64,000 bases of DNA, taken from contig NZ_FSRT01000002.1 in assembly GCF_900143015.1 (NCBI RefSeq), forward strand, positions 496,001-560,000, given 5' to 3'. The position numbers and the translations under genes were made by a program. The notes beneath the pieces were generated by a model. It made no database searches. It saw only the letters and a list, made by a program, of their open reading frames with translations, and had not been told where the DNA came from. Position 1 is the stretch's first letter, and each line of letters opens with the position of its first letter. Positions 34,694 to 51,640 of this stretch are shown piece by piece. The stretch is from Fibrobacter sp. UWB11. GTDB lineage: Bacteria > Fibrobacterota > Fibrobacteria > Fibrobacterales > Fibrobacteraceae.

Positions 34694-34707
34694 GCATTAG
34701 AACGAAG

Positions 34708-34731
34708 GCCCGCGAAAGCGGGCTATTTTTT
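34708..34731 (+). terminator. Terminator of the 234-aa gene
   Basis: GCCCGC-GAAA-GCGGGC followed by TATTTTTTT is a tetraloop hairpin with U-tract. Confidence 0.9.
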
Positions 34732-34888
34732 TAGTTTCCGCTTTTGGCTGCGGTGATGTCGGAGTTGATTTCGTTATTCACCTCCCAATGACCACCATTC
34801 TGACCACCCATTCCATTTGCAATCTCTGCATCAAACGAATAGTTTTCGTTCAGCGGTTAATGACGTTCTCGAATTTTGCAAGATCCAT
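34731..34888 (-). pseudogene. Frameshifted small gene with antitoxin-like tail
   Basis: ATG at 34888 overlaps the stop of the upstream YhcG remnant (TAATG) and gives only MDLAKFENVINR before a stop. In the next frame the reading continues ENYSFDAEIANGMGGQ...NNEINSDITAAKSGN to a stop at 34731. The ending resembles the E-I-N-A-E-I-x-A-A-R tails of the antitoxin and PIN genes at 36-37 kb. I take it as a decayed antitoxin-like gene. The evidence is short. Confidence 0.35.
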
Positions 34889-35493
34889 TACGTGACCTCC
34901 CTACCATCTTGCGTTTCGAATTCATTTACCCATTCCTTGACCTTCGCCTGCAATAATTTCTTGTCCGGCAGGTACAGCTCATAGGCGGAGGCGTAAATAT
35001 TCGCATCTTCGGGCAAAGTCAGCTTCACAAGGGTATCCTTCTTCTCCTTGCAAAGCAAAATACCGATGGTAGGCTTTTCAAAATCCTGCTTTACATAGCG
35101 GTCGTAATAGTTTACGTACATCTGCATCTGGCCGAGATCCTGGTGCGTCAACTTGTCAACCATCAAGTCAACGAACACATAGCACTGCAACAGACGATTG
35201 TACAGGCTTGAACCATACTGCCGCTGCAACTCGCGAACCGACCAATTTCCGGAAGTAGCCTCTATCTCGTAAAAACGACGTTCATCATCATTCTTGATGC
35301 GCATGAGAACCAGATAATGGGTCCAACTTAACGTAAAATCAGGGGGATCGGAGATTTGACAATCACTGATTGTCAAATTGCCATATACCAAGAAAAACTG
35401 CCTCACCTGCCTCAAATTCGAAACCTTATTGAACAACGATTCCACCGCTTTTGCAGGGAAGTTCTCTTTATTATTAGCCATGTTAGCCTCCAT
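34888..35493 (-). pseudogene. DUF1016/YhcG nuclease remnant with internal deletions
   Basis: The 201-residue reading clearly belongs to the DUF1016 (YhcG, PD-(D/E)XK) family: TLSWTHYLVLMRI, FYEIEATSGNWSVRELQRQ, LTHQDLGQMQMYVNYYDR and PTIGILLCKEKKD are all family segments. Two blocks are missing. The N-terminal region is shortened to a few residues before SNLRQVRQFF. The catalytic core is also gone: SLYNRLL runs directly into QCYVFVDLMVDKL, skipping about 70 residues with the Y-x-D-L strand, and the expected Lys of D-L-K is Met. Nuclease activity is therefore unlikely. A perfect palindrome lies inside it at 35354-35378. Confidence 0.7.
35354..35378. repeat. Perfect palindrome inside the YhcG remnant
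   Basis: ATTTGACAATCA and TGATTGTCAAAT form a 12-bp stem around a single base. It is in frame in the remnant and encodes NLTISDCQIS. A diverged copy with an 8-bp stem lies at 35978-36002, at the same protein position in the second remnant. Confidence 0.8.
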
Positions 35494-35856
35494 GTGGTCA
35501 CGACTTGTGACCGGTTGATGTTAGAGGCGTCCCCTAATTCTGAAATTACAGAATAAAAAAAGCGCACTAAGCCGAGAGCAGCGAAAATAAGCTTGCTTAT
35601 TTTCATTGCCGAGGCGAATGCGTTAGCGTTCTAAAAACGCAAAACGCGGTTCTCCATTTGACAGAGAATCGCGTCGGGCATTAATGTACCTATTATTCAA
35701 AAAAAATGGCACAAATGCGTAAGGCGAGAGTCGCAGCCATGCTTGCATGGATATGACCGAGCCTAGCATTTGGCGCTTGCGCAACGGGGGCAAGAAAACT
35801 TTACAAGAGGAACTTGTAAGCAATCCTTACAAGTTGGGAACCACGAAAGGGTGAAC
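35494..35856. other. Non-coding stretch rich in short hairpins between two YhcG remnants
   Basis: No convincing gene is present. Hairpins include GAAAATAAGC-TT-GCTTATTTTC (about 35582-35603), CCATGC-TT-GCATGG (about 35738-35751), and AACTTGTAAG-CAATC-CTTACAAGTT (35811-35835). Hairpins of the same build also surround the intact YhcG gene at 53-54 kb. Confidence 0.55.
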
Positions 35857-36072
35857 TTATGTTCTCCCTCTATTTCGTAAACACCGTTTCCGAAATTCGG
35901 AGAAGTCCAAATCGTTCGCCAATGGCGAACGATTTATAAAATGAATCCAGCTTAATGTGAAATTTGGGGTATCCGAGATTTGACAATCACCGTCTGTCAA
36001 ATTGCTGTATATTTTCCCAGCCATTTCACCGGATTGGGTGGTATTGGGTAGTTTATTGGGTAAATCCTTCAC
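35857..36072 (-). pseudogene. Second DUF1016/YhcG fragment
   Basis: The 71-residue frame contains NLTDGDCQISDTPNFTLSW, which matches the segment NLTISDCQISDPPDFTLSW of the first remnant, and then NRSPLANDLDF. After that the frame is lost. Another frame continues VYEIEGEHKFTLSW, recalling the family FYEIEA segment. A hairpin with arms AAATCGTTCGCC and GGCGAACGATTT (35909-35935) encodes the NRSPLAND part. It is an older, more decayed copy of the same gene type. Confidence 0.55.
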
Positions 36073-36650
36073 TTCCCGCTCCGGGCGGCGGCTATCTCGG
36101 CGTTTATCTCGTCGAGCGTCATACCTGCGGAACCGGCCTTCTCGGCATCGGCAGATAGCTGTTGCATGGTACGGAGCATGCGGCTTGCAACCGGGTTCGC
36201 ATTATAGAACATTCGCCTGTCATTCACGAACATCGTACGCAGCGGAGCATCAACGATATCAAGAAATTCTCGTGGAGTAACAACAAAACCGCAGACCGGG
36301 AAATGTTTGGTGTTACCTGTAACCAAGTACGCGCCGTCGTCTCGCTTGGCCAGGACCACATTGTAAAACACAACGTCCTTTGGGTCGGGGAGCACGACTC
36401 CACTTGGCGGAGCATCGACATTCAGGCTGTGCTTCAACAACTCGGAAATAACAGTCTCAACGGTTTCCTGCTCCAGATTGAATTTAGGACGCGCAAGAAC
36501 TTCCTTGTATTCGGCAAGAATCTCATTGTTCACAAGCATGCAAACGCGGCCAGATAAAATTCTCTGAATAACCTGCAACACTGGCGATTGCGGAGACCTG
36601 GTGATCAAGGCGGACACAATGACATTAGTGTCAATGACTGCATAAACCAT
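36069..36650 (-). CDS. PIN-domain toxin with an antitoxin-like C-terminal tail
   Basis: The ATG at 36650 (MVYAVIDTNVIVSAL) is chosen: GAGG lies 6 nt upstream, and the 4-residue extension relies on TTG. Residues 1-135 are a PIN domain of the 'putative toxin-antitoxin system toxin component, PIN family' type, with acidic residues in VIDTNV, the middle E in NNEILAEYKEVL, and DPKDVVFYN. Members cleave RNA. The last 60 residues are unusual: NANP...RMLRTM followed by GMTLDEINAEIAAARSGK is like the C-terminus of the partner antitoxin (DANPGWRAFMELRR, GMSEAEIEAEIAAYRAGK). Confidence 0.85.
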   Translation of the reverse strand: MVYAVIDTNVIVSALITRSPQSPVLQVIQRILSGRVCMLVNNEILAEYKEVLARPKFNLEQETVETVISELLKHSLNVDAPPSGVVLPDPKDVVFYNVVLAKRDDGAYLVTGNTKHFPVCGFVVTPREFLDIVDAPLRTMFVNDRRMFYNANPVASRMLRTMQQLSADAEKAGSAGMTLDEINAEIAAARSGK

Positions 36651-36667
36651 GAGCCACCTCAACTAAG

Positions 36668-36961
36668 TTACTTGCCTGCTCGATAAGCGGCGATCTCGGC
36701 CTCGATTTCAGCCTCGCTCATGCCTGCGGCGGGGCCTCGCTGGGCCTGCCTGCGCAATTCCATGAAGGCCCTCCATCCGGGATTGGCATCGTAAACGGCG
36801 GACGGCTCGCGCAGTTCGAACGGGATGCCCTTCTCGGCGACGGCGCGCTTGAAAAAGATGCGGATTGCCGTGGGGATGTCGATTCCCAGGTTTTCGAAAA
36901 GCTCGGCGGCCTCGTTCTTTAGTTCTTCGTCCACGCGGACCTGCAACACGGTAGTAGCCAT
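36668..36961 (-). CDS. RelB/DinJ-type antitoxin
   Basis: The ATG at 36961 (MATTVLQVRVDEELKNEA) is preceded by GGAGG; the longer frame runs into a GC-rich repeat and is rejected. The 97 residues start with a ribbon-helix-helix motif (residues about 4-45, LQVRVDEELKNEAAELFENLG then IPTAIRIFFKRAV), typical of RelB/DinJ. The C-terminal part (about 60-97) wraps the toxin and ends GMSEAEIEAEIAAYRAGK. The toxin gene follows within 20 bp. Antitoxin and toxin should jointly repress their own promoter. Confidence 0.9.
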   Translation of the reverse strand: MATTVLQVRVDEELKNEAAELFENLGIDIPTAIRIFFKRAVAEKGIPFELREPSAVYDANPGWRAFMELRRQAQRGPAAGMSEAEIEAEIAAYRAGK

Positions 36962-37284
36962 ATCAACCTCCGTTCTATTACAAATATAATACAAAACATT
37001 ACACACGTCAAGCACTAAATGCTGGAATATAGGCAGATTTATAGACAGGCGTTCCCCGGCCCAGGCCCCTGAGCTTGCCGAAGGGCCGGGTCGGGCTATA
37101 TCGCAAGGCGCCCCGTGCGCGCCTACGGCACCCCCGCGCCGCTCTTGCAACGGAGCCGCGCAAGCGCGTCTCCGCCCCAAGGGGTCACTATCCCTAACGT
37201 AAATGCGGGATTACCTTACAGAACTTATTCGATGGCGAAACTGATGCGAAGGTTTAAACAGTTCATACCTTTGAAGAAAATTTT
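36962..37284. other. GC-rich intergenic repeat sequence upstream of the antitoxin
   Basis: There is no gene here. An AT-rich antitoxin promoter (36965-37020) is followed by a very GC-rich block (about 37045-37175). Its piece CCCCTGAGCTTGCCGAAGGG is repeated, inverted, near 51747-51777 as CCCTTCGGCAGGCTCAGGGG, and a related form occurs at 63341-63361. Composition is far from that of both neighbours. Confidence 0.55.
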
Positions 37285-38211
37285 TTAAGGCTTTTTAAAA
37301 ATAAATCTTTGGGACATTTGCTCTATCACCTTGTTGTAGTAATCTACCTGAACTTGATTCAAAGATATGGGCATCCATTTAGTATAACACTCCCTTGGAG
37401 AGATTAAGATTGCAACTTCAGGCGACATAGGATAATAAAGCTCCAAATCCTTATAGGTTAATTCCCCTTTACCCTTATACGAAGCACACACATTGACCAC
37501 TGGTTGGTCTGATGTTATAAACAATGTTCCGGTTTTATTAACCAGCGGGAAAATTTTCATATCATCCGACATGATTATATTATGAGCCAATCTAGTCGCA
37601 AAAATCCAGCGATAAACATTTTGTGTATTCAGTGACAATCTTTCAATTTCGCCACCCACCTGCTTTGCACATGAAATATATTTTTCTTGCATAAGAGGCG
37701 TCCGTATGTATTGTAAAACAACCCAAAGAATAAATTCCATCTCGTTATCTTCAATCGACCAATATGAGGGCGAAAAAGTTTCTATATTAGTTCGCCATTC
37801 TGGGATTTTCCCCTCAATAACGGAAAAAAGTTTTTCCTCGGTATTCTTTTCTAACCAATTCGCCGCGGCCTCCCATTTCACCTGTTTGCAAAATGCCCAA
37901 AATTCGTCTTTCAAAGAAAAACATTTTAACCAACCCATCAATAGGCCTTTCAAAGGTTCTTGAGAATCCTCTATCCAAGCACGATAAAGAAAGTTAAGCT
38001 GTTCGCCTGTCAATGGAGTGGTCTTATAAAAATACTGCTGATTTGCAACATTTTCAACTTTTGGGGTGAATGTATTGCCGTTAGTTTTATCTTGGCACTC
38101 TAAATGTTCGTTTACATCTACCCATGCTTTCAAATAGCATCTTGGTACATAGTGCTGACGACGAACGATATCATCTTCTAACTTTTTTTCGACTTCTTCA
38201 AATTCAGACAT
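37285..38211 (-). CDS. DUF4238 domain protein
   Basis: This 308-residue protein has the DUF4238 landmarks: RRQHYVPRCYLKAW near the N-terminus (residues about 17-30), LFITSDQPVVNV in the C-terminal third (about 230-241) and LYYPMSPEVAILI (about 258-270). Members are often found in defence islands and mobile elements; biochemical function is not known. The gene is AT-rich and stands alone, separated by about 190 bp from the restriction operon on the same strand. Confidence 0.85.
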   Translation of the reverse strand: MSEFEEVEKKLEDDIVRRQHYVPRCYLKAWVDVNEHLECQDKTNGNTFTPKVENVANQQYFYKTTPLTGEQLNFLYRAWIEDSQEPLKGLLMGWLKCFSLKDEFWAFCKQVKWEAAANWLEKNTEEKLFSVIEGKIPEWRTNIETFSPSYWSIEDNEMEFILWVVLQYIRTPLMQEKYISCAKQVGGEIERLSLNTQNVYRWIFATRLAHNIIMSDDMKIFPLVNKTGTLFITSDQPVVNVCASYKGKGELTYKDLELYYPMSPEVAILISPRECYTKWMPISLNQVQVDYYNKVIEQMSQRFIFKKP

Positions 38212-38397
38212 ACATAATCCTGCTCACAAAAAAATGCGAAATTTAAGGGAGCAATCTCAAATCACGCCTATAGACTAACTTTAGTTTATATTATTGTTAT
38301 TTCAAAAGTCGTAAAAAGTAAATTATATTTTGCTTACAATAAAATGTACAAACTAAATAGTTTATATCTAATTATCGTCATTATTTTGCGCAAATTG

Positions 38398-38553
38398 CTA
38401 CAAGTTTGCTAGAATTTCTTCTGACATTTGGCGAGCTTCTGGATAATCGGCGTTGATTCGCTTAGAATCTCTTATCTTTTCAAGAGCGTCCTTGGAACGG
38501 CCTTCGCTAATAATTCTTAATGGGAATTTAACCGTGTTCTCGTTCCGTTTATT
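38398..38553 (-). pseudogene. C-terminal gene fragment after the LlaJI-like gene
   Basis: An open frame without a start codon reads KFPLRIISEGRSKDALEKIR...EARQMSEEILANL to a stop at 38398. Just upstream, another frame gives EFDVEINGTRTRLN. Together they look like the end of a frameshifted gene directly following the restriction operon. Family unknown. Confidence 0.35.
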
Positions 38554-38567
38554 TCAACGTCAAATTC

Positions 38568-40487
38568 TTAATTAATCACATCAATTACTTTCGGAGAATG
38601 TGCGTTTGTTGCATCATTTCCCTTATACGCATTGATGGATTCCTTTAACTCGCTTACACTAATAGAATCGTCAATTTTATAATTGCAGATTTCCACAACG
38701 ATATAGTCTTCAGCGGAATGTGCGCTGCCAGAAAATCCATTTTTCCCCAATTCTATCTGCAATTTTTCAGCATCCATAACAGAGATGTTTTTCGAAATAT
38801 CCCCTCGAATAATTCGACCGTCATCTGCATAGCCGATAAATTTTTTGCAGCGTTTCAAATCGGGATGAATCGGGTATTTGAATCCGTCTTTTGTTCTGTA
38901 GAAATAAAATAGAAACGACTCAGGCTTTAATGCATCGGCAATAAAGTTGAAATAAGGTTGTTTTAAATAACCGATCATAGTCAGCTGATTGTCAACATTT
39001 TCTTTTGACTTTCTCTGCAAAGTCTGTGAAGTATCGAGTATTCCTGAAAAAACATCTTGGAATTGAACTTCGCCTCTTACCTTATTGAGTTCGTCTTTGC
39101 AGGATTTTCCTTTTATATACGCATCCCACACAAAAGACGGCCTTAAAAACAGCAGATATAATGGGACAAGAGTTTCAACACCCCAATCCATCATAGTCAC
39201 ATGCCCGCGAAGCTTTATGTTTTCCGTTTCATCAGAATCAGAAAGCATTGGGAACAAGAATGCGTTAAAGACGGTGCAATGATATTGACTGAAAATGTAA
39301 TCAAGGAAAGCTTTATGATAGACAAACTGCTTTACAACATCTTGAACACCGGGATTTCCACTAATTTTATTATTGGTTATACGAGGTAAATAGTATTTCC
39401 CGTCCAGAATGTAAAAGAGTTCTGAACCATCAGGATAATTGTATCTTGTAACAATGTCTGGAATTAGCGTCTCAACATTTTTGTCAAAGTTGCCATCTAA
39501 TTTCCACAACGGCTTTGGAATATGCCTTTTCAATGTTTCATACTCATTCCCAAATATCTGTCCGCAGGCTTTTTCCCAAACCAGGTTCATGCAGTTTGTC
39601 CCATAGAGACTATAAGAGTTCTCCTGCGAACTTGTTCCGGATGTGGCGACAAATGTGTAAAGCGTTTTTAAAAGATTCTGCTTTCTTGTGATAAATTGGT
39701 TTGCAATTTCTCGTTCTAGACGGTAGAGGATATAATCCGTATCGCCAAAGTCCTTCAAATCTAATTCACTTAGAAGGACCTCCGGCATATCAAAGAAATC
39801 CAATATCGTCAATTCCTTAAGATATTTGGAGCATTGAGTAACGATGCATTCATGAAGGCGCTTGAAATAATCAAAATCATCATTTTGCGACGAGCGTGTT
39901 TTCAGTTCCAGATAATAAGGGCGATTGTCTTTTATATAGGCAAAGGTTTCGTTAATTGTTCGGTCCCAGTCGATTTCACCATCGCCATTGGTTTCTATGA
40001 TTTCCTGAATGTTTGTATAGACACCGTTCTCGAAGTAATCCTGCAAAATGTGCAACGACAAAGCCAATTTGTTATACTCGTCTTTATCGTCCCTATTATG
40101 CAAATGAACCAATTCGCCTTTAGAATCGTATTTGCGAATAGCTTTAATTGCCAACTTCAATTCTTCGAGAATCTTTTCTTTATCGGAATATGTAGTGTAT
40201 TTAGGGTAGCAGAAGACTACTTTATCTTTTACAGCGACAATGCCAACAAAGTCAAACTTGTAGCTTGCTCCTGAAACTTCTTCTGCAGAATCCGCTATGA
40301 CAAGGTCGTCGTTGGTCAAATCCGCGAAATCAAGACTGTCTTTCTTGACAATTTTCACAATCCCGTATTTACGGAGTGTATTTATGTAGGCTTTTACATT
40401 TTCAGAGGTACATCCCAGACGCTCCCTAATCTCATTTAGGGAGTATCGCTTCAATTCTTGAAATAGGGATGGTTCTACTTTTGTCAT
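38568..40487 (-). CDS. LlaJI/McrC-like restriction nuclease subunit
   Basis: This 639-residue protein resembles the LlaJI restriction endonuclease family (McrC-like partner of a McrB-type GTPase). An N-terminal winged-helix-like part has LNEIRERLGCTSENVKAYINTLRKYGIV (about 14-41; read as LNEIRERLGCTSENV plus KAYINTLRKYGIV). The putative PD-(D/E)XK centre is LIPDIVTRY followed by YILDGKYYLPR (about 340-375), giving PD...DxK. It overlaps the GTPase gene by 4 bp (ATGA). With that GTPase and the methyltransferases it should cleave unmodified DNA by GTP-driven translocation. Recognition sequence cannot be read from sequence. Confidence 0.82.
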   Translation of the reverse strand: MTKVEPSLFQELKRYSLNEIRERLGCTSENVKAYINTLRKYGIVKIVKKDSLDFADLTNDDLVIADSAEEVSGASYKFDFVGIVAVKDKVVFCYPKYTTYSDKEKILEELKLAIKAIRKYDSKGELVHLHNRDDKDEYNKLALSLHILQDYFENGVYTNIQEIIETNGDGEIDWDRTINETFAYIKDNRPYYLELKTRSSQNDDFDYFKRLHECIVTQCSKYLKELTILDFFDMPEVLLSELDLKDFGDTDYILYRLEREIANQFITRKQNLLKTLYTFVATSGTSSQENSYSLYGTNCMNLVWEKACGQIFGNEYETLKRHIPKPLWKLDGNFDKNVETLIPDIVTRYNYPDGSELFYILDGKYYLPRITNNKISGNPGVQDVVKQFVYHKAFLDYIFSQYHCTVFNAFLFPMLSDSDETENIKLRGHVTMMDWGVETLVPLYLLFLRPSFVWDAYIKGKSCKDELNKVRGEVQFQDVFSGILDTSQTLQRKSKENVDNQLTMIGYLKQPYFNFIADALKPESFLFYFYRTKDGFKYPIHPDLKRCKKFIGYADDGRIIRGDISKNISVMDAEKLQIELGKNGFSGSAHSAEDYIVVEICNYKIDDSISVSELKESINAYKGNDATNAHSPKVIDVIN

Positions 40488-42169
40488 TTCTTGAAGTTAA
40501 AAATGCCTTGGCCGATTTCGTCAAACTTTTTGCATATATCCGAGAAACGCAACTTGCCAACAGCATTTTCATCGAAAAGGTCGCCAGGACGCATTTTTAC
40601 GGCATCTTCAAAGAGATACATCAGCACCTTGCTCTTGAAGGATTTGACAAATTCGTCGGCATTATCTTCTTTTTTGCCCTCAACCAACTTTAGTTTTTCT
40701 TCGGAAATAAAATAAGGACCAAGCAACTTATCTTCGTTGATTTTCATTTCTGTCAATTTGTCATTGATTGAATGACGAAGATCGTTCCACTTTACCCATT
40801 CACGACCAATGACTTTGCCGTCCGCATCTTTTTTGATTTCTACCGGAATGTCGTATTTTTCAATTCCCTCTTGGTTGTCATCAATACCGATGTATTCAAA
40901 TTCCCAACGACGCTTGAATGCGGTATCCATCGGGAATACGCCCTGGTCGGCACTGTTCATTGTCGCCCAGATGTACATATTGGAAGGAATGCAAAGTTCC
41001 TTTTCGTTAATTCCATTATCAGCAAGAAAATTCCTAATATCTTCGCTAGCAGCAATGGGATATTCGCTTACACCATTTTTACGATCAAGAAGTTGGAATA
41101 CGTCGCCAAAAACGGCAGCAACATTAGCCCGGTTAATTTCCTCAATAATAAGCAAAAAGTCATTATTGGAATTTTTCTTAGCGGCACAATACATACGCAT
41201 GAATGGGCCGGGAACATATTCGTATTTTATTTGCTTTTTATCATCGCTGTCTTGAACCGGCTTATATGTCCCGACAAATTGTGCATAACTATAATTGGGA
41301 TGAAATGTAACTCTTTCAACATACTTTATTTCAGTTTCTATTTCTGACGATCTTATTTGTGAAGCCTGCGCGCCCCTATAAATCCACCACATTTGGGGTT
41401 CAGAAAGTTCAAAGGTCTTTCGCAGTTCGTCAAGAGTCCAATCTTTTAAGAAATCTCCAAATTTAAAACCGATTGCATTTGCCCATTTGAGCGAATCGTT
41501 ACCTCCCTTTTTATTCTGAATGAGATCCTTAATAAAATCAATATCTGTCAGTTGCTCATCTTTCTCTATTTGAATTTCATCTGAAATCGGCTTTGCATTG
41601 GATCCTATATAAAGTTCATCTATTTTATCATACTCACAATAACTAGACAAATCTTTCCTCTGAATACTTTTCAACTCATCGGAATATTTGAATCCAATAG
41701 AATTTAACAAAGTTAATTTTCTGGATTTTGTAATAGCTTCAGCAATCGCGTTCCTAATTTCATCTTTTTTATCTTTACTAATCTTTTTTTGGTCTTCAAA
41801 AGGAGAAGATTGTTTATTTATTGTAAAACTTTTTCCGGTGCCTGGGGCTCCAAAAACAACTCGCTGCAAAGGAATGCCAGATAATTGGGTATTTGCGTTA
41901 AAACTTTGATTTGCGGCCCCATCTAGTTCTTCTTTTTGGACATCAATAATTTTCCCGCTTAAATTGTTTTTAGAAATAAATTTTCCCAAATCAGAACTAT
42001 TTGGAATATATGAAAGAAAATATTCTGTACTAGAACTCTTCGCCAATGTAAAGAAATCATCTTTATTTGCGGCCAAAGATAATCCAAGTTCATGAATAAA
42101 AAAATCTTTTATAAAAAGTGATTCGTCTAAATTTTGATAGACTTTATAATCACCTCGTGCAGGGCTCAA
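40484..42169 (-). CDS. McrB-like GTPase restriction subunit (AAA+)
   Basis: The visible 561-residue frame begins with TTG at 42169 and has no obvious ribosome site. A preceding 58-residue ORF in another frame probably supplies the true N-terminus. The AAA+ core has Walker A VVFGAPGTGKSFTI (about 103-116), Walker B FLLIIEEINRANVAAVFGDV, and the McrB hallmark MNSADQGVFPMDTAFKRRWEF (read as MNSADQG then AFKRRWEF), the equivalent of MNTADRS that marks GTP-using McrB. It powers the LlaJI/McrC-like subunit encoded next. Confidence 0.88.
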   Translation of the reverse strand: MSPARGDYKVYQNLDESLFIKDFFIHELGLSLAANKDDFFTLAKSSSTEYFLSYIPNSSDLGKFISKNNLSGKIIDVQKEELDGAANQSFNANTQLSGIPLQRVVFGAPGTGKSFTINKQSSPFEDQKKISKDKKDEIRNAIAEAITKSRKLTLLNSIGFKYSDELKSIQRKDLSSYCEYDKIDELYIGSNAKPISDEIQIEKDEQLTDIDFIKDLIQNKKGGNDSLKWANAIGFKFGDFLKDWTLDELRKTFELSEPQMWWIYRGAQASQIRSSEIETEIKYVERVTFHPNYSYAQFVGTYKPVQDSDDKKQIKYEYVPGPFMRMYCAAKKNSNNDFLLIIEEINRANVAAVFGDVFQLLDRKNGVSEYPIAASEDIRNFLADNGINEKELCIPSNMYIWATMNSADQGVFPMDTAFKRRWEFEYIGIDDNQEGIEKYDIPVEIKKDADGKVIGREWVKWNDLRHSINDKLTEMKINEDKLLGPYFISEEKLKLVEGKKEDNADEFVKSFKSKVLMYLFEDAVKMRPGDLFDENAVGKLRFSDICKKFDEIGQGIFNFKK

Positions 42170-42183
42170 TTTTAAATAGCCCT

Positions 42184-42360
42184 TTATATTTTTTTATCAA
42201 GTGAGGGCTTGAAATTATAATCATTATAAACAAAGGTGATGTATTCCTCAGTATTTTTAAACTCAAAGAACTCTTGAACATTCTTTGAGCTAAACTCCAC
42301 TTGTTTTCCATAACTTGGATCTAAGTCGTTTGTTCGAAATTTAACGATAAGGATCTTCAT
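42184..42360 (-). CDS. N-terminal piece of the McrB-like protein, out of frame at an A7 run
   Basis: ATG at 42360 overlaps the upstream methyltransferase stop (ATGA) and is preceded by GGAGG. It encodes MKILIVKFRTNDLDPSYGKQ ... NDYNFKPSLDKKI, 58 residues. The frame ends right after seven A (minus strand, 42189-42195). One added A would join it directly to the GTPase frame (KK-NIKGYLKLSPARG). Either this is a real frameshift, or slippage at A7 makes full-length and short forms. The piece looks like the DNA-reading N-terminal domain of McrB-like proteins. Confidence 0.7.
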   Translation of the reverse strand: MKILIVKFRTNDLDPSYGKQVEFSSKNVQEFFEFKNTEEYITFVYNDYNFKPSLDKKI

Positions 42361-43541
42361 TTAGTCCTCCTTTTCTTTAAAAATTCCATTAAGCTTTCGC
42401 CCATCGCTTTCCCTAAAAGCGGGGGAACTGCATTTCCTACTTGAACATAGGTCTCTTGTTGATTTCCAACAAAAACAAAATCATCTGGGAAAGACTGCAA
42501 TCGTGCCGCTTCACGAACAGAAAGGGTTCTGTTTTCTGTCGGATGGATATACATGTATCCATCCATTCCAATGTGCGCAATAACAGTCCAAGAAGGTTGG
42601 TCCATTATCAGACGTTTCAGTCTATCATGGAAAATATCTTCTCTAAACGGCAAAATTCTTCGGATTTCAGGAGGTAAATCCATATATTTACCTCCTTGAG
42701 GCATATGAGGAAAAACCTGTTTAGCTCTGTCATTAGACATTCTACAAATGTTGTTAGAGACAAATCTCGAGCTATGATTTGAACGCATTATTTTCTGATA
42801 TTCATTTAAGCGAGTATATTTAGAATACTCAACTTCCGAAACACGCCAATTATCCGTAATTCTAGGCAAATCACCAATAGCATCGCCAACGGTTACAAAA
42901 TGTTTCAAACCTTTCTTATCTTCTTGATCATAATAATGAGTTGGCTTTGGATAGGAAAATTTCAGTTTCGATTTCTTTTGGGCGACCAAAAGCATTCTTT
43001 TTCTTGTCTGTGGCACTCCATAATATACGCTGTTCAAAACTTGAACAGGCTTGATTACTTCATAGAGTCCTTCTCCACCATTTTCTTCTTTTCCAATACT
43101 TTCAATAATCTTGACAGCTGTATTAAATATCTTGCCGTTATACTTTGTTATAAAATTCGGAACATTCTCAATAACAAATATTTCGGGACGAAAATATTCA
43201 ACATACTTTAGGTATTCTAAAAACAGCTGATTTCTAGGATCCTTTTCTGTTGGCAAACCCGTAACAGAACGAATTTTTGCGTCTCCAATGGTTGAAAAAG
43301 TCGGGCAAGGAGGCCCTCCGATAATGACATCAACCTTTTTTTTACCAATAATCTTCGCAAATTTTTCGGGCGGAATCTCTCTTATGTCACCACAAATGGA
43401 TTTTGAATGTTTGTGATTTAGTGCGTGAGTTTTTACAATGGTTTCTATATTATCTATTCCTCCAATGCACCTAAAACCAGCCAATTCAAGCCCTGTTGAA
43501 AAGCCTCCTGCACCACAGAACAAATCAATAAATTCGTACAC
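42357..43541 (-). CDS. DNA cytosine-5 methyltransferase (copy 1, PCP motif)
   Basis: This 394-residue enzyme shows the m5C methyltransferase motifs in order: I FCGAGGFSTGLELAGF (about 7-22), IV GGPPCPTFSTIG (catalytic Cys, about 76), VI ENVPNF, VIII YGVPQTRKRMLLVAQ, and X VQVGNAVPPLLGKAMG. Motif IV reads PCP rather than the usual PCQ. It abuts the next methyltransferase gene with no gap. In LlaJI two such enzymes modify the two strands of an asymmetric site, and this pair may do the same. Confidence 0.93.
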   Translation of the reverse strand: MYEFIDLFCGAGGFSTGLELAGFRCIGGIDNIETIVKTHALNHKHSKSICGDIREIPPEKFAKIIGKKKVDVIIGGPPCPTFSTIGDAKIRSVTGLPTEKDPRNQLFLEYLKYVEYFRPEIFVIENVPNFITKYNGKIFNTAVKIIESIGKEENGGEGLYEVIKPVQVLNSVYYGVPQTRKRMLLVAQKKSKLKFSYPKPTHYYDQEDKKGLKHFVTVGDAIGDLPRITDNWRVSEVEYSKYTRLNEYQKIMRSNHSSRFVSNNICRMSNDRAKQVFPHMPQGGKYMDLPPEIRRILPFREDIFHDRLKRLIMDQPSWTVIAHIGMDGYMYIHPTENRTLSVREAARLQSFPDDFVFVGNQQETYVQVGNAVPPLLGKAMGESLMEFLKKRRTK

Positions 43542-44744
43542 TTAATTAACCTTTTTCAAAAATTTTTTGATAGCCTTTGCTAAAGCCTGTGCCATTAAGG
43601 GAGGCACGGCATTCCCAACTTGACGATACTGCTCTGTTTTAGAACCTTCAAAGAAAAAGTCATCTGGGAAAGATTGAACTCGAGCCGCTTCACGCACAGT
43701 AAAAGTTCGTTCCTGATTTGGATCAGGATGAATGAATAGATTTCCATCCTTGTAAAGGTGCGCGCAAATCGTTTTTCCTGGCTTACCCCATTCTTGAACA
43801 GTATATCTGTTTCCAAAATGCTTCGGATCGTGATTTACCAAATCGGGACGAACACACTGCAAATCTTTTAATTGCCAATTTTGATGCTCACTCAAAATAC
43901 GATAGCGCTCTCGATCTTTCTCATTCTGAGTTCTTGCCGTATGGTTATAAACAGACTTAAAACCATCAGGTTTTATTTTAGAAAGAAAATCGTTATGAAT
44001 ATCTGTTTCGTAATTTTCCCAAACTTCTTTGCCTTCAGAAGGGAGTACAAAAGGCAAATCCGAAATTGCATCCCTAATTGTCACATAAGGCGGCAACTTT
44101 GATTTTTCATCGTTGCTATTGGTCTTTACAACACTCTTATATATCTCTTCGGGCTCAATATCAAGATCGTTTCTGACGCCAATGAGTATGACTCTTTCTC
44201 GAATTTGTGGGACACCGTAATCAGCGGCGTTCAAGAGAATGATTTTAGAATCATCACAAACCTTATAAGTCTTACGCATTTTTGAAATTATTTCGTCAAA
44301 AATTCTTTTTCCCTTCGGTTTTGCTGTAAGGATTCCACGAACATTTTCAAAAACAAAAAACTTTGGTTTAAAATGATTCAACACCAGCAAATAATTTTCA
44401 AACAAGTAATTACGCGGATCATCCTTCATTGAATTTGGATCCTGAGCTCGACCCTGTGTCGAAAACGCCTGACAAGGAGGGCCTCCAACTAAGATGTCTA
44501 CATTCGAATCAATCCGTGATGACAATTCTTCCACAATATCTGGACGAGTAATATCATCGCATACAACGGCTTTCTCAATATCTGGAGCCTTGTAGCCATA
44601 GTGTTTCATTCTTGTCCGCAGAGTCTGGCAAGCAGTAGCATCCCATTCTAAGTGCAACAAAGCCTTAAAACCTTCTCGATAGAAGCCTTCAGATAACCCA
44701 CCACATCCGGCAAATAAATCAATAAATGTAAACTTCTTAGGCAT
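43542..44744 (-). CDS. DNA cytosine-5 methyltransferase (copy 2)
   Basis: This 400-residue m5C methyltransferase has motif I FAGCGGLSEGFYREGF, IV GGPPCQAFSTQGRAQD (catalytic Cys about 90), VI ENVRGILTA, VIII DYGVPQIRERVILIG and X RQVGNAVPPLMAQAL. The target recognition domain lies between VIII and IX (about 200-340) and differs from copies 1 and 3, so the three enzymes probably read different sequences or strands. Its start overlaps the end of the small helical protein gene by 8 bp. Confidence 0.94.
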   Translation of the reverse strand: MPKKFTFIDLFAGCGGLSEGFYREGFKALLHLEWDATACQTLRTRMKHYGYKAPDIEKAVVCDDITRPDIVEELSSRIDSNVDILVGGPPCQAFSTQGRAQDPNSMKDDPRNYLFENYLLVLNHFKPKFFVFENVRGILTAKPKGKRIFDEIISKMRKTYKVCDDSKIILLNAADYGVPQIRERVILIGVRNDLDIEPEEIYKSVVKTNSNDEKSKLPPYVTIRDAISDLPFVLPSEGKEVWENYETDIHNDFLSKIKPDGFKSVYNHTARTQNEKDRERYRILSEHQNWQLKDLQCVRPDLVNHDPKHFGNRYTVQEWGKPGKTICAHLYKDGNLFIHPDPNQERTFTVREAARVQSFPDDFFFEGSKTEQYRQVGNAVPPLMAQALAKAIKKFLKKVN

Positions 44745-45045
44745 CTTTCTTCAGTTGCTCAGACAGAGCTTTAATAAATTCAGCATAACGCTTTAACGCA
44801 TTGATTACGGTCGAATGTCCTTGTTTTCCGACTAACTCTTTTTCTCCGCCAACATCATACTTCTTGACAATTTGGTCAATACATTTTGGAAGTGTAATTA
44901 GAGAAACACGTTCTGCATCACATACTTTCTTTATTGCGTGAATATATTGAGGCACAGTTGATGGCAAACCAGATGGCGTGACTTGAGAATACCCACAATC
45001 AATAAGAAATTCTTCAAATAAATCCAAAAGTTTATTATCAGCCAT
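44737..45045 (-). CDS. Small helical protein, 102 aa, unknown
   Basis: ATG at 45045 (MADNKLLDLFEEFLID) is chosen for a GAGG 9 nt upstream; the longer frame reads back into the receiver gene. The all-helical pattern (LLDLFEEFLIDCGYS, then VPQYIHAIKKVCDAERVSL, then STVINALKRYAEFIKALS) recalls the SAM-like core-binding domain of tyrosine recombinases without a catalytic part. It overlaps the receiver gene by 8 bp upstream and methyltransferase 2 by 9 bp downstream, so it is an integral part of the operon. It might be a DNA-binding adaptor or regulator. Confidence 0.75.
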   Translation of the reverse strand: MADNKLLDLFEEFLIDCGYSQVTPSGLPSTVPQYIHAIKKVCDAERVSLITLPKCIDQIVKKYDVGGEKELVGKQGHSTVINALKRYAEFIKALSEQLKKDA

Positions 45046-45976
45046 TTGATGAGACCTCATTTGAAAGGTTTTTAAACACATTATGATATTTAATAATATT
45101 TTTTCGTATATTAATAATATCCTCGAAATTAAACTTTTTATCTTCTTTTGAAGTTTTCAGAATTTCATTTCCTTCAGCATCATATGCCGCCTGACAATGC
45201 GCTAATATATTTCGATTATCAATAATCTCAGATTTGTATGACTCGAGATTAAACTCTATGTCGCTTTCAGAGTCTTTCGCCTTTATCTTTTGAACAATGT
45301 AGTTAATAGCTCTAGCCGTTGTATACGACTCAAAACCTTGTTTAAATACAACATCCTTGATATTCTTAGTTCGCCAGACATGCGTACATTGCTTCTTACA
45401 ACTTGAACTCTCTAAAGAAGTCTTGTTACGTTCTTCAATTGTTCCAACAATGTAATCACGCATATTTTTCTCATTTTCTGAATCATTGCAATAGTCGGAA
45501 ACAATTTTTTTCATCACTACATCAAGTTCACTCACCTCGGACATGACAAGTCCACGAAGATTGCTTAGATCATTTAGTTTTTCCAAAGTTAAATTGATGA
45601 CTGATTTCATTTTTTCTTTTAGCTCATCATAGGAGCGATTGTCTTTTAAACGAAGAAATGAAATCCTGTCCAAATTCGTTGCAGGCGGATTATGAAGAGC
45701 TGAATAGAACAAAACTTCAGCATTAACACATTTCTTTCGAATCGCCGTTATGAAATCAAGACCGTCCCCGCCTTCGCCAATATTGTAATCAGAGAAAATA
45801 ACATCATATTTTTTTGACGGCGCTTTTTCTTCCGCCTCTCTTATGTTATCATACATATCAATACAAGGGTTGAAAAAAAGCCCTTGAACATAGGATTTAA
45901 TTTCTCCATCCATTTCTAAAGATTGATATTCTTCTTTTCTATCATCGACCCAAAGGATGTTGTATTGTAAACTCAT
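45038..45976 (-). CDS. Receiver-domain protein with HEPN-like C-terminal domain
   Basis: ATG (MSLQYNILWVDD) with GAGG upstream is preferred over a TTG 8 codons earlier. Residues 1-125 are a response-regulator receiver: acidic pair in LWVDDRKEEY (D11, D12), phospho-acceptor in VIFSDYNIGEGG (D63), S92 in LFYSA and K111 in LRLKDN. The C-terminal 180 residues have no DNA-binding motif. They are helical and contain EIIDNRNILAHCQ (R255-x4-H260), the Rx4-6H signature of HEPN RNases, plus a C-x3-C-x-H cluster (SCKKQCTH). The histidine-kinase-like partner is encoded directly upstream. I infer a phosphorylation-controlled effector. Confidence 0.78.
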   Translation of the reverse strand: MSLQYNILWVDDRKEEYQSLEMDGEIKSYVQGLFFNPCIDMYDNIREAEEKAPSKKYDVIFSDYNIGEGGDGLDFITAIRKKCVNAEVLFYSALHNPPATNLDRISFLRLKDNRSYDELKEKMKSVINLTLEKLNDLSNLRGLVMSEVSELDVVMKKIVSDYCNDSENEKNMRDYIVGTIEERNKTSLESSSCKKQCTHVWRTKNIKDVVFKQGFESYTTARAINYIVQKIKAKDSESDIEFNLESYKSEIIDNRNILAHCQAAYDAEGNEILKTSKEDKKFNFEDIINIRKNIIKYHNVFKNLSNEVSSNG

Positions 45977-45986
45977 TACGATAACC

Positions 45987-48377
45987 TCACTTAAACGCAA
46001 ATATAAATTTTACGCCATGACATTTATTGTCAATTTGTATGTCAACATTCATTTTTTTACAAATTTCCTGCACATGGTACAAGCCTAATCCTCCGCCATT
46101 CGTAGTAGAAAAGCGATAGTCAAAAACCTTTGGAAGAATTTCGTCAGAGATCCCGTGTCCATCGTCACTAAAGTTCAGCAAAACCGTTGAACCTTTTTCT
46201 TCCCATTGGATAGTAATGTTTTTTGCCTCCGCTTTTCGAGAGTTATCAAGCAGGCTATCCAGAACAACAATGAGATCAATCGGAGCAAATTGCAATTCAT
46301 GCGAAATGGTCGTTTCTGCTACTGAAATATTCATGTCCTCATTAGCCAACGAATACACGTTGTTCATATATTCGTTAACAAAAGCAACAATATCTTTTGT
46401 TATTTTTTTTGACATCAAGTCAAATTTTGCTTTGCTTACAAAATTGGAAAGTGTCGCAATTTTGGTATTCTCAAAAATAATTCGCTGAATAAACGATATT
46501 GATTTCTCTTTGTTGTCTGAATTTATCGCATCAATCGCTTTTAGTGCTAAAGCATGAATAAAACTAGATGTATGCGTTATGTGGTGTTGCAAAGAGGCTA
46601 GCTGCTTGACATCTTTATTAACATCCGAAGACAAGAATAGATTTTCCGAACGCATCCTTTTATTTTCGGATTCGGCCTTATTCTGCTTCGCCTCGGCTAT
46701 TTGGGCGTTATATTGCGCCTGGTCTCGTTCTTGGCTCGCCTTTTCCGCACGAAGATTCGCTTCCTCGGCTCTTTTTTCAGCATCTTCTTTTTGCTTCTGT
46801 AATTCAGCAATTTTTTTTCTGGCATCTTCTACAGATGCCATCAATTTGCCATCTTTTGTATTTTCTGCGATCCGTTCTAAATCGGTAATAACTTGAGGAT
46901 TGGCATTATCGAACAAATTCGGCTCTTCAAAAATGTTTGCCAAGTCCTTATTGTAGTATATGACATCGATATTTTCATCGCTAATTAGGGTCTTTACCAA
47001 CTGAACAAAGTCAATCTTACTCCCCAGACTAGAGTTGATTACATATTCTGCGGAATCTGAGTCCTTATCCTGACTTAATAAGGCCCTATTCCTTTCAACT
47101 TCGGCCTTATCTTTAAAATACTGTCTTCTTAAGAAGGCTTCGCCCCATAATACACCAGAAACATATCGCTCTAGTCGATGGTGGACCACATCGAACAACC
47201 TTAACAACTGAATGGTTGTCTCCGATTCAATTAGGCCACCATCGCGGCTAGAGACCTCTTTAAATTCGTCAATTTTGTCTGTCTGAATATCAACACGACC
47301 AAACAAATCACGAGTTCCAAGAAAACGATTATAACCCTGTTGAGCTCTATAATCGAGTTTCCAGCTATCATCTCCAGGATTACCAAAAGGAAGGATTCTA
47401 AAACCATTACGGAACAGAAAAACTGATCCATATTTAACGGGCTGGATGCCCATTTCTTCTGTGAAATTCTTCTTTGCCGCTCTGTTGAGAAAATAGAGAC
47501 TTATTTTTACAGCCTTAAGTTTGTCGAAAGTATTCTTTTCCTTGATCTGATAAATTTTCGTATCACGGTCAATCAAAAGAGTTTCGATACTATCGGCATT
47601 TAATGAAACATCAATCTTTGTGGTCTTTAATCCGATAACTTTGGCAATACTATTTTTTAGTACGCCATTGACTATATCACGATCGTGTGCGTTCTTCTTT
47701 ATTTCTTCGGCATCTTGCTTCTTTTCGTTTTCGCAAACGATTTCGATAGAAAAACTAGAAGTATCGGATAGCGGATTAATTAATTTTTCAAGTGAACGTT
47801 TTAATTCAAGAATCTTGGGGCGATCCCAATTTTCTCGAAGTCCACTTATCTCCAAAATAGTTCCCGTATTTTTTCTCTCTGGGAACGATACTTTTTCATC
47901 TAAAGAATCGTGTTCTACATTGATGTCAATAAATTCTTTTTTTTGGTCTTTCTCAAAATCCTTCCAATGTACAATTAGCCGTTCAGTTTGTTTTGACTCT
48001 TTCTTTTTTGTGGTTAATTGGAGATTTTCTCCCAACCTATCACACGAAAAACGACCTACGCCTTTTGCACCAGCATAATGCCTGCCAATTTTATCGCGAT
48101 AAGACTGCTGTTTTTCATCTTCTGCATCTTCCGAGCCGTCTTTCTTTGCGGAATAAGCCAAAAAAAGCCACTTGTTTTTCAAGTCATCAAAAGTCATTCC
48201 CTTACCATTATCGGCAATCGTAATCTTATCGGATTCAAATATTATGACAACTTTTGAAGCGAACGCATCATAGGAATTTTTGACAAGTTCAAAAACCGCA
48301 ATGTTATCATTGCGAATCAAATCTTTACCGACTAAATCCTTGATGGCTGAACTGACTTTAAATTGGACTTTATCCAT
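45987..48377 (-). CDS. Double-GHKL ATPase: MutL/MORC-like domain fused to histidine-kinase-like domain
   Basis: This 796-residue protein has two Bergerat ATP sites. The N-terminal one resembles Hsp90/MutL/MORC: FELVKNSYDA (29-38), ADNGKGM (55-61) and GAKGVGRFSCDRLG (about 102-115). A middle domain leads to a long coiled coil (about 510-575, Glu/Lys/Ala/Gln heptads). Then a possible phospho-His helix, SLQHHITHTSSFIHAL, comes before a kinase-type ATP site: DSLLDNSRKAEA, SDDGHGIS, VFDYRFST and GGGLGLYHVQEI. Its start overlaps methyltransferase 3 by 8 bp, and the receiver gene follows 10 bp downstream. It looks like a cytoplasmic DNA-engaged sensor kinase. Confidence 0.82.
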   Translation of the reverse strand: MDKVQFKVSSAIKDLVGKDLIRNDNIAVFELVKNSYDAFASKVVIIFESDKITIADNGKGMTFDDLKNKWLFLAYSAKKDGSEDAEDEKQQSYRDKIGRHYAGAKGVGRFSCDRLGENLQLTTKKKESKQTERLIVHWKDFEKDQKKEFIDINVEHDSLDEKVSFPERKNTGTILEISGLRENWDRPKILELKRSLEKLINPLSDTSSFSIEIVCENEKKQDAEEIKKNAHDRDIVNGVLKNSIAKVIGLKTTKIDVSLNADSIETLLIDRDTKIYQIKEKNTFDKLKAVKISLYFLNRAAKKNFTEEMGIQPVKYGSVFLFRNGFRILPFGNPGDDSWKLDYRAQQGYNRFLGTRDLFGRVDIQTDKIDEFKEVSSRDGGLIESETTIQLLRLFDVVHHRLERYVSGVLWGEAFLRRQYFKDKAEVERNRALLSQDKDSDSAEYVINSSLGSKIDFVQLVKTLISDENIDVIYYNKDLANIFEEPNLFDNANPQVITDLERIAENTKDGKLMASVEDARKKIAELQKQKEDAEKRAEEANLRAEKASQERDQAQYNAQIAEAKQNKAESENKRMRSENLFLSSDVNKDVKQLASLQHHITHTSSFIHALALKAIDAINSDNKEKSISFIQRIIFENTKIATLSNFVSKAKFDLMSKKITKDIVAFVNEYMNNVYSLANEDMNISVAETTISHELQFAPIDLIVVLDSLLDNSRKAEAKNITIQWEEKGSTVLLNFSDDGHGISDEILPKVFDYRFSTTNGGGLGLYHVQEICKKMNVDIQIDNKCHGVKFIFAFK

Positions 48378-49560
48378 TCATCACCTCCATCAAGGCTCTT
48401 CCCACCTGTTCTGCAAACAATGGCGGCACCGCGTTTCCGACTTGTGTATATCGAGGAACTTCTTTTTTCCTTAACTTTCCGCCCGAAGTATATTTTCCCT
48501 TAAATTCAAACCAATCGGGGAAACTTTGAATTCGAGCCTGCTCGCGCACTGTAAGAATTCGCGGTTCTTCGTAATGAACGAGTTCATCTGGAATTGACGT
48601 TATTGTCGGTGCTTGAGAATTCGCATCAAGGACTGTAACACCACGCCTTTTCAGATTTTCTATTAAGCCATCTTTGGGCGTTATTCGCTTGCCTTTGGGG
48701 GCATTCTGCAACAAATCGTTGTGCAATTTTATCACTGCGGCAGAATGATTGACAAAACGATGACTGTCAACGGCACCCTGATGATTCCGAAGTCCTTGAC
48801 GCATCAGCCTTTGATAACCTGAATCGGCTCGACCATAGAACCCGGCTTGGAACCGTTTGGTATCGGGAGACTGGCATGTGCCGTTCGCTTCTTCCAAATC
48901 GCCAATAGCATCTCGAATAGTTGTAGATTGTCTGATTCCTTTTTCTCGGCAGAAATTATTTTTGTTGCCCTCCAAATGAGCAAATACTTCGGATGGGTCA
49001 GAATTCCGCATAGCAACAAGGATAAACCTACGCCGTTTTTGAGGAACACCGTATTGGGAGACATCAATAACTTTGGAATCCGTACGATAACCAAGTTCTT
49101 CAAGCTTCTTTATGACATAAGACGAATATTGGGATATTCGTCCCTTTTGGCTTTGAAAATGAACGGTAAAGCCATGTACATTTTCGAATATGAGCGCCCT
49201 GGGCTTGACTAACTCGACAAACCTTATATACTGTTTAACAAGCTTGTTACGCGAATCGCTCAGATCCCTTTTTCCAGCAAGTGAGAATCCCTGACAAGGC
49301 GGGCCCCCTGCTACCAAATCCACCTGGCCTTCCAGCTCACGAAGTTTATCTTCGTTTTCATCCAAAAATTTTTTGATATCATGTTCTTTCACATCCAACC
49401 AATCGGGCCACTGGAAATGATGACCATGATCAATCAAATTATACTTCAATGTAGAGAACGCATCTTTATTTTTTTCAATAGCGAATATGCCTTGCCAACC
49501 GGCATTTTGCAAACCAACGGACAAGCCGCCGCACCCTGCGAATATGTCGATATAGCGCAT
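48370..49560 (-). CDS. DNA cytosine-5 methyltransferase (copy 3, first in operon)
   Basis: This 396-residue enzyme has motif I FAGCGGLSVGLQNAGW (about 6-21), IV GGPPCQGFSLAGKRD (catalytic Cys about 88), VI ENVHGF, VIII QYGVPQKRRRFILVA, and X TQVGNAVPPLFAEQVG. It is the first gene of the operon, with GGAGG 7 nt before the ATG. Putting modification first protects host DNA before the nuclease subunits appear. It probably modifies a site read by this system, but may pair with the GHKL protein instead of the LlaJI-like nuclease. Confidence 0.94.
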   Translation of the reverse strand: MRYIDIFAGCGGLSVGLQNAGWQGIFAIEKNKDAFSTLKYNLIDHGHHFQWPDWLDVKEHDIKKFLDENEDKLRELEGQVDLVAGGPPCQGFSLAGKRDLSDSRNKLVKQYIRFVELVKPRALIFENVHGFTVHFQSQKGRISQYSSYVIKKLEELGYRTDSKVIDVSQYGVPQKRRRFILVAMRNSDPSEVFAHLEGNKNNFCREKGIRQSTTIRDAIGDLEEANGTCQSPDTKRFQAGFYGRADSGYQRLMRQGLRNHQGAVDSHRFVNHSAAVIKLHNDLLQNAPKGKRITPKDGLIENLKRRGVTVLDANSQAPTITSIPDELVHYEEPRILTVREQARIQSFPDWFEFKGKYTSGGKLRKKEVPRYTQVGNAVPPLFAEQVGRALMEVMNG

Positions 49561-49779
49561 TTATGCCTCCATGCCTTTCACGAGGTTGCCAGGCCTTTTG
49601 GCCTTGTTGTCAAGAAATGTTGAATGCATACAATATCTCAAGTTTAATATACATATTTTCACCATTTAGGTAAATAGGAACATCTTTTTTCACTTACGTA
49701 GAGCCGGGGCGTTGCGGGGCCGGCGTATGAGGCCCCGCAGAGGGGGTGGTGAGCAACGGAGTGCGAGCCAGGGGGATTC
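49561..49779. other. Upstream region of the restriction operon plus GC-rich repeat
   Basis: 49561-49690 is the operon leader on the minus strand, with GGAGG next to the start and a small AGGCC-TTTT-GGCCT hairpin. TTGACA is present in the minus-strand leader, but I could not pair it with a clear -10. 49700-49779 is GC-rich, with GGGGCGTTGCGGGG, which recurs at 51705-51720. No gene is visible. Confidence 0.4.
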
Positions 49780-50062
49780 TTCCCCCACCAAGTAAAAAGG
49801 CGGCGTCATTCTTCCATCAGTACCGCGATGTCGTCCTTGTCGAGGTCGGTGCCGAAGGCTTGCCGGTAGCTCGATTCCAGCGCCTCTCCGGGGGTGCAGT
49901 TTTCCCTGAACAGGACCATGCCGCTGTCCAGGCATTCCATGTCCAGCTCGCCGTCGATGTCGATGCTTTCCGGCCGGAACGTGGACCATAGGCAATAGTC
50001 GGTGAACCCTTCCCGAATGTCTTCTTCGAGCAGGTTGTCGCCCGTGCCCGCCTGGACTTTCA
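49780..50062. repeat. 280-bp direct repeat, copy A
   Basis: Near-identical (about 95% by eye) to 51802-52084 in the same orientation. It covers the C-terminal 80 codons of a small gene and the sequence just beyond its stop. Confidence 0.85.
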
Positions 50063-50123
50063 GGAACGCCTTTGCGCTCTTGACCCATGCGAGTATCGCG
50101 CCGCCGAACGTGTCGTTTTCCAT
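49806..50123 (-). CDS. Hypothetical protein, 105 aa (paralogue A)
   Basis: The protein begins MENDTFGGAILAWVKSAKAF and is acidic, with LLEEDIREGFTDYCLWSTF and DKDDIAVLMEE at the end. It is soluble and of unknown family. It shares about 80 C-terminal residues almost unchanged with the 103-residue protein at 51829-52140, while the first 20 differ. This shows a recent segmental duplication or gene conversion. Base composition is more GC-rich than the restriction operon next to it. Confidence 0.7.
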   Translation of the reverse strand: MENDTFGGAILAWVKSAKAFLKVQAGTGDNLLEEDIREGFTDYCLWSTFRPESIDIDGELDMECLDSGMVLFRENCTPGEALESSYRQAFGTDLDKDDIAVLMEE

Positions 50124-50323
50124 AGAGCCTCCGCCCCGAAAGATAGATAATGCTAGTGACAGAAAATGACTTGTTAATTATGGCGATTTCGCCACAATTG
50201 ATTTTCGAGAAATCTCTTGACAGGGCCCGTGCAAGGATGTATATTTAGTGAACAAATGTTCTAGTGCTCAAAATTTCAAAAAGAGTTGCGGTTTTACGCT
50301 TGTCCGCAGCGAAGGAGTGAAAA

Positions 50324-51121: not shown

Positions 51122-51184
51122 GTTGTCTCGGGATTCTTTTGTATGGTCGCCGCAGATTTACCCCAGTGTGGTCCACATTACGCT

Positions 51185-51640
51185 TCACGTCATTTCTGAC
51201 ATGTGTCGTACGCCGAGGCCGCCCGGAGATTCTATCCACTCGGATTCCGGCCAGAGTTTGAATTTCAGTACGGACACGCCCAAGAAACCATTGTAAGTGG
51301 CAACATCCCCCGTCAGAATTTCGCCGATTATCATGCCGCATCCGTTTGTCTTGCCGAACAGCTTTTCGGCCTTGGCGCAGTTTTTCTTGAGTTTTGCGAG
51401 CGCGGTTTCGCGGTCTTTTGCGGTTGCTTTCTTCAGGAATTTGCTCCACAGTTTTTCCCACTTGGCGATGTCGTTTTGCAGGTCGTCTTCATGCGCGCGG
51501 GATTTGGAGACTGCGACAGCGAGGCGCTTGTTCGCAAACATTTTTGCGTTTGTCCGCCATTCAAATGTCTTTACGCCGGTAAGCACCAGCTGGGCGTATG
51601 GCGAGCGGATGACGAAGTAGTGTGACGGTTTACCTTGCAT
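51185..51640 (-). CDS. ASCH (PUA-like) domain protein
   Basis: This 151-residue protein has an ASCH-type beginning, HYFVIRSPYAQLVLTGVKTFEWRT (read as YFVIRSPYAQLVLTGVK and TFEWRT). It continues with the strand MIIGEILTGDVATYNG and an acidic-aromatic end. ASCH domains bind RNA or modified nucleotides. A Lys-rich helical insert (about 50-95) separates the strands. It lies convergent with the KilA-N gene inside the repeat-bracketed cassette. Confidence 0.75.
   Translation of the reverse strand: MQGKPSHYFVIRSPYAQLVLTGVKTFEWRTNAKMFANKRLAVAVSKSRAHEDDLQNDIAKWEKLWSKFLKKATAKDRETALAKLKKNCAKAEKLFGKTNGCGMIIGEILTGDVATYNGFLGVSVLKFKLWPESEWIESPGGLGVRHMSEMT

What the first reader, a model, noticed from the sequence alone, without database searches (positions are those of the whole stretch)
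42184..42360. McrB-like gene split at an A7 run: decay, or slippage producing two forms
A well-initiated 58-codon frame (GGAGG, ATG overlapping the previous stop) ends just after seven A on the coding strand. The main GTPase frame begins beyond with only TTG and no ribosome site. One extra A restores one continuous protein. E. coli McrB makes long and short forms that regulate each other. Here slippage at A7 could do the same, or the system may be phase-variable by indel.
Basis: partly seen in the sequence, partly recalled or inferred. Interest (0 to 1): 0.72.

Follow-up and report, generated by a model that had tools for sequence, protein, structure and literature searches.

The report
Frameshifted specificity subunit of LlaJI-type restriction system
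A rumen-type bacterium carries a phage-defence restriction system whose DNA-recognition subunit is broken by one missing base that its relatives still have, so restriction is probably off while the protective methylases remain; this is most likely ordinary gene decay rather than a regulated switch.

Summary
In detail: a well-initiated 58-codon frame (42184-42360, minus strand) ends just after A7, and the GTPase frame continues one base out of phase. The gene is not an McrB but the R1 subunit of a LlaJI-type Type II system (two m5C methylases, R1, R2; R2 hits Pfam RE_LlaJI). In all three homologues found that share this N-terminal domain (two in sister genome G018, one in an IMG/VR contig), the 58-residue part and the GTPase form one continuous protein. 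The nearest sister has the same A7 followed by a G that the window lacks, so the run is not shorter than in the sister. The break falls inside a predicted B3 DNA-recognition domain, and the TTG start would leave only half of it. The site is not conserved, the downstream hairpin is absent in relatives, and the operon holds 13 A/T runs of 7 or more, 12 of them without a break. Best reading: a recent one-base loss that disables restriction but leaves modification (M+R-). Assembly error is the main rival; slippage, reinitiation or phase variation is possible but has little positive evidence.

The parts
42184..42360 (-). 58-codon frame: first 57 residues of the R1 DNA-recognition (B3-like) domain, then the frameshift and stop
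   Evidence: 95% identical over 57 residues to the N-terminus of the continuous 557-aa R1 of G018
42189..42195 (-). A7 run; the sister has A7 followed by G at this point, the window does not
42161..42183 (-). predicted hairpin (6 bp, 11-nt loop), 5 nt after A7, holding part of AAAGGG and, in the loop, the TTG; not predicted in G018 or L090
40484..42169 (-). main frame: second half of B3-like domain plus McrB-like GTPase (R1), TTG start
   Evidence: AAA_5, 6.2e-8; PADLOC REase_II, 1.5e-83
38568..40487 (-). R2 nuclease subunit; ATG overlaps the R1 stop (ATGA), no visible ribosome site of its own
   Evidence: (Pfam RE_LlaJI, 8e-62)
42357..43541 (-). m5C methylase, 98% identical to the one next to R1 in G018
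43542..44744 (-). m5C methylase, 92% identical to its G018 counterpart
34700..54800 (.). variable island between conserved flanks, in which the operon sits
   Evidence: the flanks at 24.35-34.69 kb and 54.8-63.2 kb are about 0.2 kb apart in G063

Best explanation
The locus is a LlaJI-type restriction-modification operon (M, M, R1, R2). R1 finds the target with an N-terminal B3-like domain and R2 cuts. In this genome a recent loss of one base at the junction of A7 and the next codon puts R1 out of frame at residue 57, inside the B3 domain. Translation ends at once. Some ribosomes may restart at the TTG just after the stop and make a GTPase with half a recognition domain, which should not find the target. 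R2, whose start overlaps the R1 stop and has no ribosome site of its own, would then be made poorly or only through such restarts. The methylases lie upstream and stay intact, so the cell is predicted to be modification-plus, restriction-minus. Shown: the break, the continuous homologues, intact methylase and R2 frames; the domain hit is supported by a fold prediction of a homologue. Inferred: loss of restriction, polarity on R2, and that the base is truly missing from the cell's DNA.
For: 3 of 3 homologues with this N-terminal domain are continuous in one frame: G018 R1 (L097 6508-8181), G018 second R1 (L097 9849-11678) and L090 4806-6677. The base difference against G018 at the junction is exactly one. 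The 58 codons still look under strong constraint (dN/dS 0.034, 17 synonymous and 4 non-synonymous differences), so the break is young. The modelled L090 domain is B3-like (Foldseek best 6c5d, H. pylori LlaJI.R1 NTD, E 1.6e-3; 6c5d_A Z 8.2 over 110 residues) and the TTG start drops strands 2-9, 38-45 and 58-64 of the model. R1 is the specificity subunit and both R1 and R2 are needed for activity in LlaJI (PMC1459862, abstract and passages). No clean one-base break was seen in 64 G000 genes comparable with G063, and 19 A/T runs of 7 or more lie in frame in 55 intact orthologues.
Against: No reads were available, so the missing base may be an assembly error. Adjacency to an A7 is what one would also see for a homopolymer error. 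GeneTack's authors expect BLASTp-validated single frameshifts to be sequencing errors rather than true indels (PMC3711429, passages). The R2 frame and the methylases show no decay.
Confidence: 0.6

Rival explanations
1. Assembly or sequencing error: the cell's DNA has the extra base, R1 is intact and the system works normally.
For: One-base difference beside a homopolymer; everything else in the operon is intact and R1 codons look constrained. Literature: 109 of 138 Brucella genes with a frameshift or early stop were intact on resequencing, as quoted in PMC3488263 (passages).
Against: No clean one-base break in 64 comparable genes of this assembly; 19 long A/T runs in frame in 55 orthologues. 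The sister has A7 too, so the base concerned may not be part of the run.
Confidence: 0.22
2. Slippage at A7 (ribosomal -1 or transcriptional) or reinitiation at TTG gives some full-length or short R1, tuning restriction.
For: The heptamers T_AAA_AAA and AAA_AAA_A are among the A-rich frameshift motifs listed in PMC3711429 (passages). A hairpin begins 5 nt after A7 and AAAGGG overlaps the stop before the TTG. ATA, the next codon, is the least used Ile codon in conserved genes (159 of 2024). NTD-less R1 proteins exist elsewhere (4 of 51 loci).
Against: Break in 0 of 3 homologues. Hairpin not predicted in G018 or L090, and 30 of 155 A7+ runs have as stable a downstream fold. In phase, a tandem slip would leave a mismatch at the first codon position (own reasoning). 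The TTG start lies inside the B3 domain and is CTG in the sister. ATA is not rare within this operon (47 of 194 Ile).
Confidence: 0.1
3. Phase-variable ON/OFF switch by A7/A8 length change in DNA.
For: Restriction and methylase genes can be phase variable at homopolymers (PMC3936762, passages). A run one longer would restore the frame.
Against: A7 is below the >8 bp named in that paper as likely to switch; the sister keeps frame with A7 plus G, not with a pure tract. No second allele seen: 2 of 80 genus genomes hold this domain, none in plasmids or phages, and no further hit in viral contigs.
Confidence: 0.06

Closest known systems
LlaJI (Lactococcus lactis pNP40)
   Same: Two m5C methylases, then R1 (GTPase, specificity) and R2 (nuclease), same orientation
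   Different: R1 is split by a frameshift here; recognition sequence unknown; a third methylase with GHKL kinase-like and receiver-like genes lies upstream
H. [quoted passage not shown]
   Same: B3-like fold of the recognition domain
   Different: Low sequence identity (15-18%); fold inferred from L090, not from the broken window copy
E. coli McrBC, McrB-L / McrB-S
   Same: McrB-like GTPase; a form lacking the N-terminal part is conceivable
   Different: McrB-S starts at an in-frame internal site and lacks the N-terminus (PMC3874153, passages); here there is a frameshift within the domain and no ATG before the GTPase motif
LlaI and BsuMI three-ORF cassettes
   Same: GTPase subunit that is small (337 and 343 aa) and encoded in a three-ORF restriction cassette (PMC1459862, section 5 read)
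   Different: There the small subunit is the normal form; in the branch seen here R1 is fused in 3 of 3 relatives

Membership tests
LlaJI-type Type II RM | Two m5C methylase genes adjacent and co-oriented with R1 and R2 | tested here: met
LlaJI-type Type II RM | R2 with LlaJI nuclease domain | tested here: met
   Pfam RE_LlaJI 8e-62, residues 80-421; catalytic residues not checked
LlaJI-type Type II RM | R1 GTPase of McrB type | tested here: met
   GAPGTGKS in the translation
LlaJI-type Type II RM | R1 as one protein with N-terminal recognition domain | tested here: not met
   split in the window; continuous in 3 of 3 homologues. So it is filed as a broken copy of such a system
LlaJI-type Type II RM | B3 fold of the recognition domain | tested here: inconclusive
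   B3 matches for the L090 homologue, mean pLDDT 63, three-row alignment; window copy not folded
LlaJI-type Type II RM | Restriction of unmethylated target DNA | not testable with these tools
   needs the strain
McrBC (Type IV) | No associated methylase | tested here: not met
   two methylases directly upstream
McrB-L/McrB-S two-form system | In-frame internal start after the N-terminal domain | tested here: not met
   no in-frame ATG between TTG 42169 and the GTPase motif (translation); TTG lies mid-domain. Weaker starts (TTG codons) were not excluded
Programmed frameshift | Frameshift site conserved in homologues | tested here: not met
   0 of 3 homologues
Programmed frameshift | Downstream stimulatory structure, conserved | tested here: not met
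   hairpin predicted in the window only
Phase-variable RM gene | Both tract lengths in one population | not testable with these tools
   no reads held

The most novel reading that the evidence does not exclude
A7, the hairpin 5 nt downstream and the overlapping AAAGGG/TTG form a young recoding element: a small, adjustable share of ribosomes or transcripts yields full-length R1 (and, by coupling, R2), so that restriction is throttled by recoding while methylation is constant.
Probability: 0.06. Interest if true: 0.6.

Novelty: new member of a known kind. Interest (0 to 1): 0.2.

Why it matters
It shows what looks like an early stage of restriction-system loss in which the specificity subunit fails before the methylases, and warns that automatic annotation would list an orphan 58-aa gene and an NTD-less 'McrB'. 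If recoding were real, it would be a new way to set restriction strength.

Tried and rejected
Clean NTD-less form: such R1 proteins exist (L030, L055, L071, L075: 20-24 residues from first M to the GTPase motif; 4 of 51 loci with both motifs among L029-L093; a fifth short one, L053, lies at a contig edge), but the window has no matching ATG. Split B3 assembling from two pieces: the break is in a loop of the L090 model, but a TTG start would drop the next strand, so I rate it unlikely.

More homologues of this domain: viral contigs with P0001 (none), with alignment A1 (the same contig again), a DNA pattern (none); plasmids and phages (none); phylum (5 of 167 genomes match P0001, three of them only at the GTPase start).

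Frameshift control: one search flagged 2 of 64 genes (G063 to G000), 0 of 68 (reverse) and 2 of 71 (other relatives to window). The two of 64 were aligned: one has a 29-nt gap in a diverged stretch, the other differs upstream and has one-base gaps only in its poorly conserved end; I do not count either as a clean one-base break, a judgement by eye. The two window cases (53306-53702 and 55073-55521) were not aligned; the first looks like a small indel between near-identical sequences. The control was limited to 284 kb of G000.

Two orders of events give the window sequence (direct loss of G; or G to A, then run contraction) and were not separated. REBASE and reads were not available. The Hosford and Chappie paper on 6c5d is not held; its title and the B3 statement were seen only through PMC7680126 passages.

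Full report
What is there. On the minus strand the order is methylase (43542-44744), methylase (42357-43541), a 58-codon frame (42184-42360), the GTPase frame (40484-42169) and R2 (38568-40487). R2 matches Pfam RE_LlaJI at 8e-62, both methylases match the C5 family, and the GTPase matches AAA_5 and PADLOC REase_II models. This is a LlaJI-type system, not McrBC.

One protein in relatives. The 58 residues and the start of the GTPase frame align to a single continuous frame in G018 (557 aa; 95% and 79% identity) and in IMG/VR contig L090 (623 aa). A second R1 in G018 (609 aa) has a related domain, also continuous. Only 2 of 80 genus genomes, G000 and G018, hold the 58-residue part. So the split is private to the window among 4 known copies.

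The base. Around the junction G018 reads A7, G, TATAAAGGG and the window A7, TATAAAGGG. L090 has a serine codon at the same place, as G018 does. The run is the same length in window and sister. Either the G was lost, or it became A and the run then shrank; I cannot tell these apart.

What the break hits. The L090 domain was folded with the two window pieces as further rows (mean pLDDT 63.3, pTM 0.63; the other four models were poor, 34-37). Foldseek puts H. pylori LlaJI.R1 NTD first (E 1.6e-3, no match below 1e-3), and the second look is led by B3 domains (Z 8.5 and below). Middling Z is common, so this is support, not proof; the LlaJI literature agrees (PMC7680126, passages). The break follows residue 57 and the TTG is residue 65, so a restarted protein lacks about half of the domain.

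Specificity exchange. Similarity is mosaic: methylases, 58-mer and R1 up to the GTPase motif follow G018, while R2 follows G060 (95% identity; 80% to G018) and the R1 C-terminal part is near both. In G060 a different recognition domain and methylase sit beside nearly the same R2. This fits the recognition domain travelling with its methylases (inference).

Age and constraint. Window against G018: dN/dS 0.034 for the 57 codons, 0.118 for the rest of the domain, 0.137 for the GTPase, 0.298 for R2, 0.051 and 0.015 for the methylases. The break is young relative to this divergence.

Slippage. A hairpin starts 5 nt after A7 (z -2.0, 8 of 200 shuffles as stable), but 30 of 155 A7+ runs in 284 kb have as stable a downstream fold and 7 of 155 have a perfect stem of at least 5 bp (446 of 20,000 random places). 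It is not predicted in G018 or L090. Transcriptional slippage in bacteria was studied at runs of nine, with eight productive in some organisms (PMC1088944, passages); shorter runs were not excluded there. Programmed sites are recognised by conservation (PMC3711429, passages), which fails here.

Polarity. R2's ATG overlaps the R1 stop and has no ribosome-site-like sequence; the G018 junction is identical. I infer coupling, so the break may lower R2 as well.

Assembly quality. In 284 kb of this genome no clean one-base break was found in 64 comparable genes (the flagged cases are told under Tried and rejected), and 55 intact orthologues hold 19 A/T runs of 7 or more in frame. This lowers, but does not exclude, an assembly error.

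Print searches. LlaJI with frameshift gave 4 papers and Fibrobacter with restriction-modification and frameshift gave 6 (listings; PMC3488263 passages); nothing seen there describes this locus.

Verdict. Real observation, ordinary cause most likely: a recent one-base loss in R1, with assembly error next. Interest 0.2.

Noticed in passing
45038-49560 (-): A methylase, a 796-aa protein with a BbrUII/HgiDII-like GHKL N-terminus (NCBIfam 1.9e-21, below its cut-off) and a histidine-kinase-like ATPase C-terminus, and a receiver-like protein precede the LlaJI cassette; G060 (L098) has the same trio before its own cassette (92%, 33%, 22% identity).
   Followed up: partly
38492-44746, L097, L098: Mosaic cassette: recognition domain and methylases follow G018, R2 follows G060.
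   Followed up: partly
34700-54800: Variable island between flanks conserved in the genus; sister genomes carry other content or almost nothing there.
   Followed up: partly
34888-35493 and 53563-54798: A short YhcG/DUF1016 nuclease copy at one end of the island and a full copy at the other.
   Followed up: no
41320-41830 (-): R1 carries a stretch of about 150 residues between the Walker motif and TFHPNY, shared in part with L090 and absent from G018 at that place.
   Followed up: no
53306-53702: Possible small indel against G074 (L112) in a minus-strand frame.
   Followed up: no
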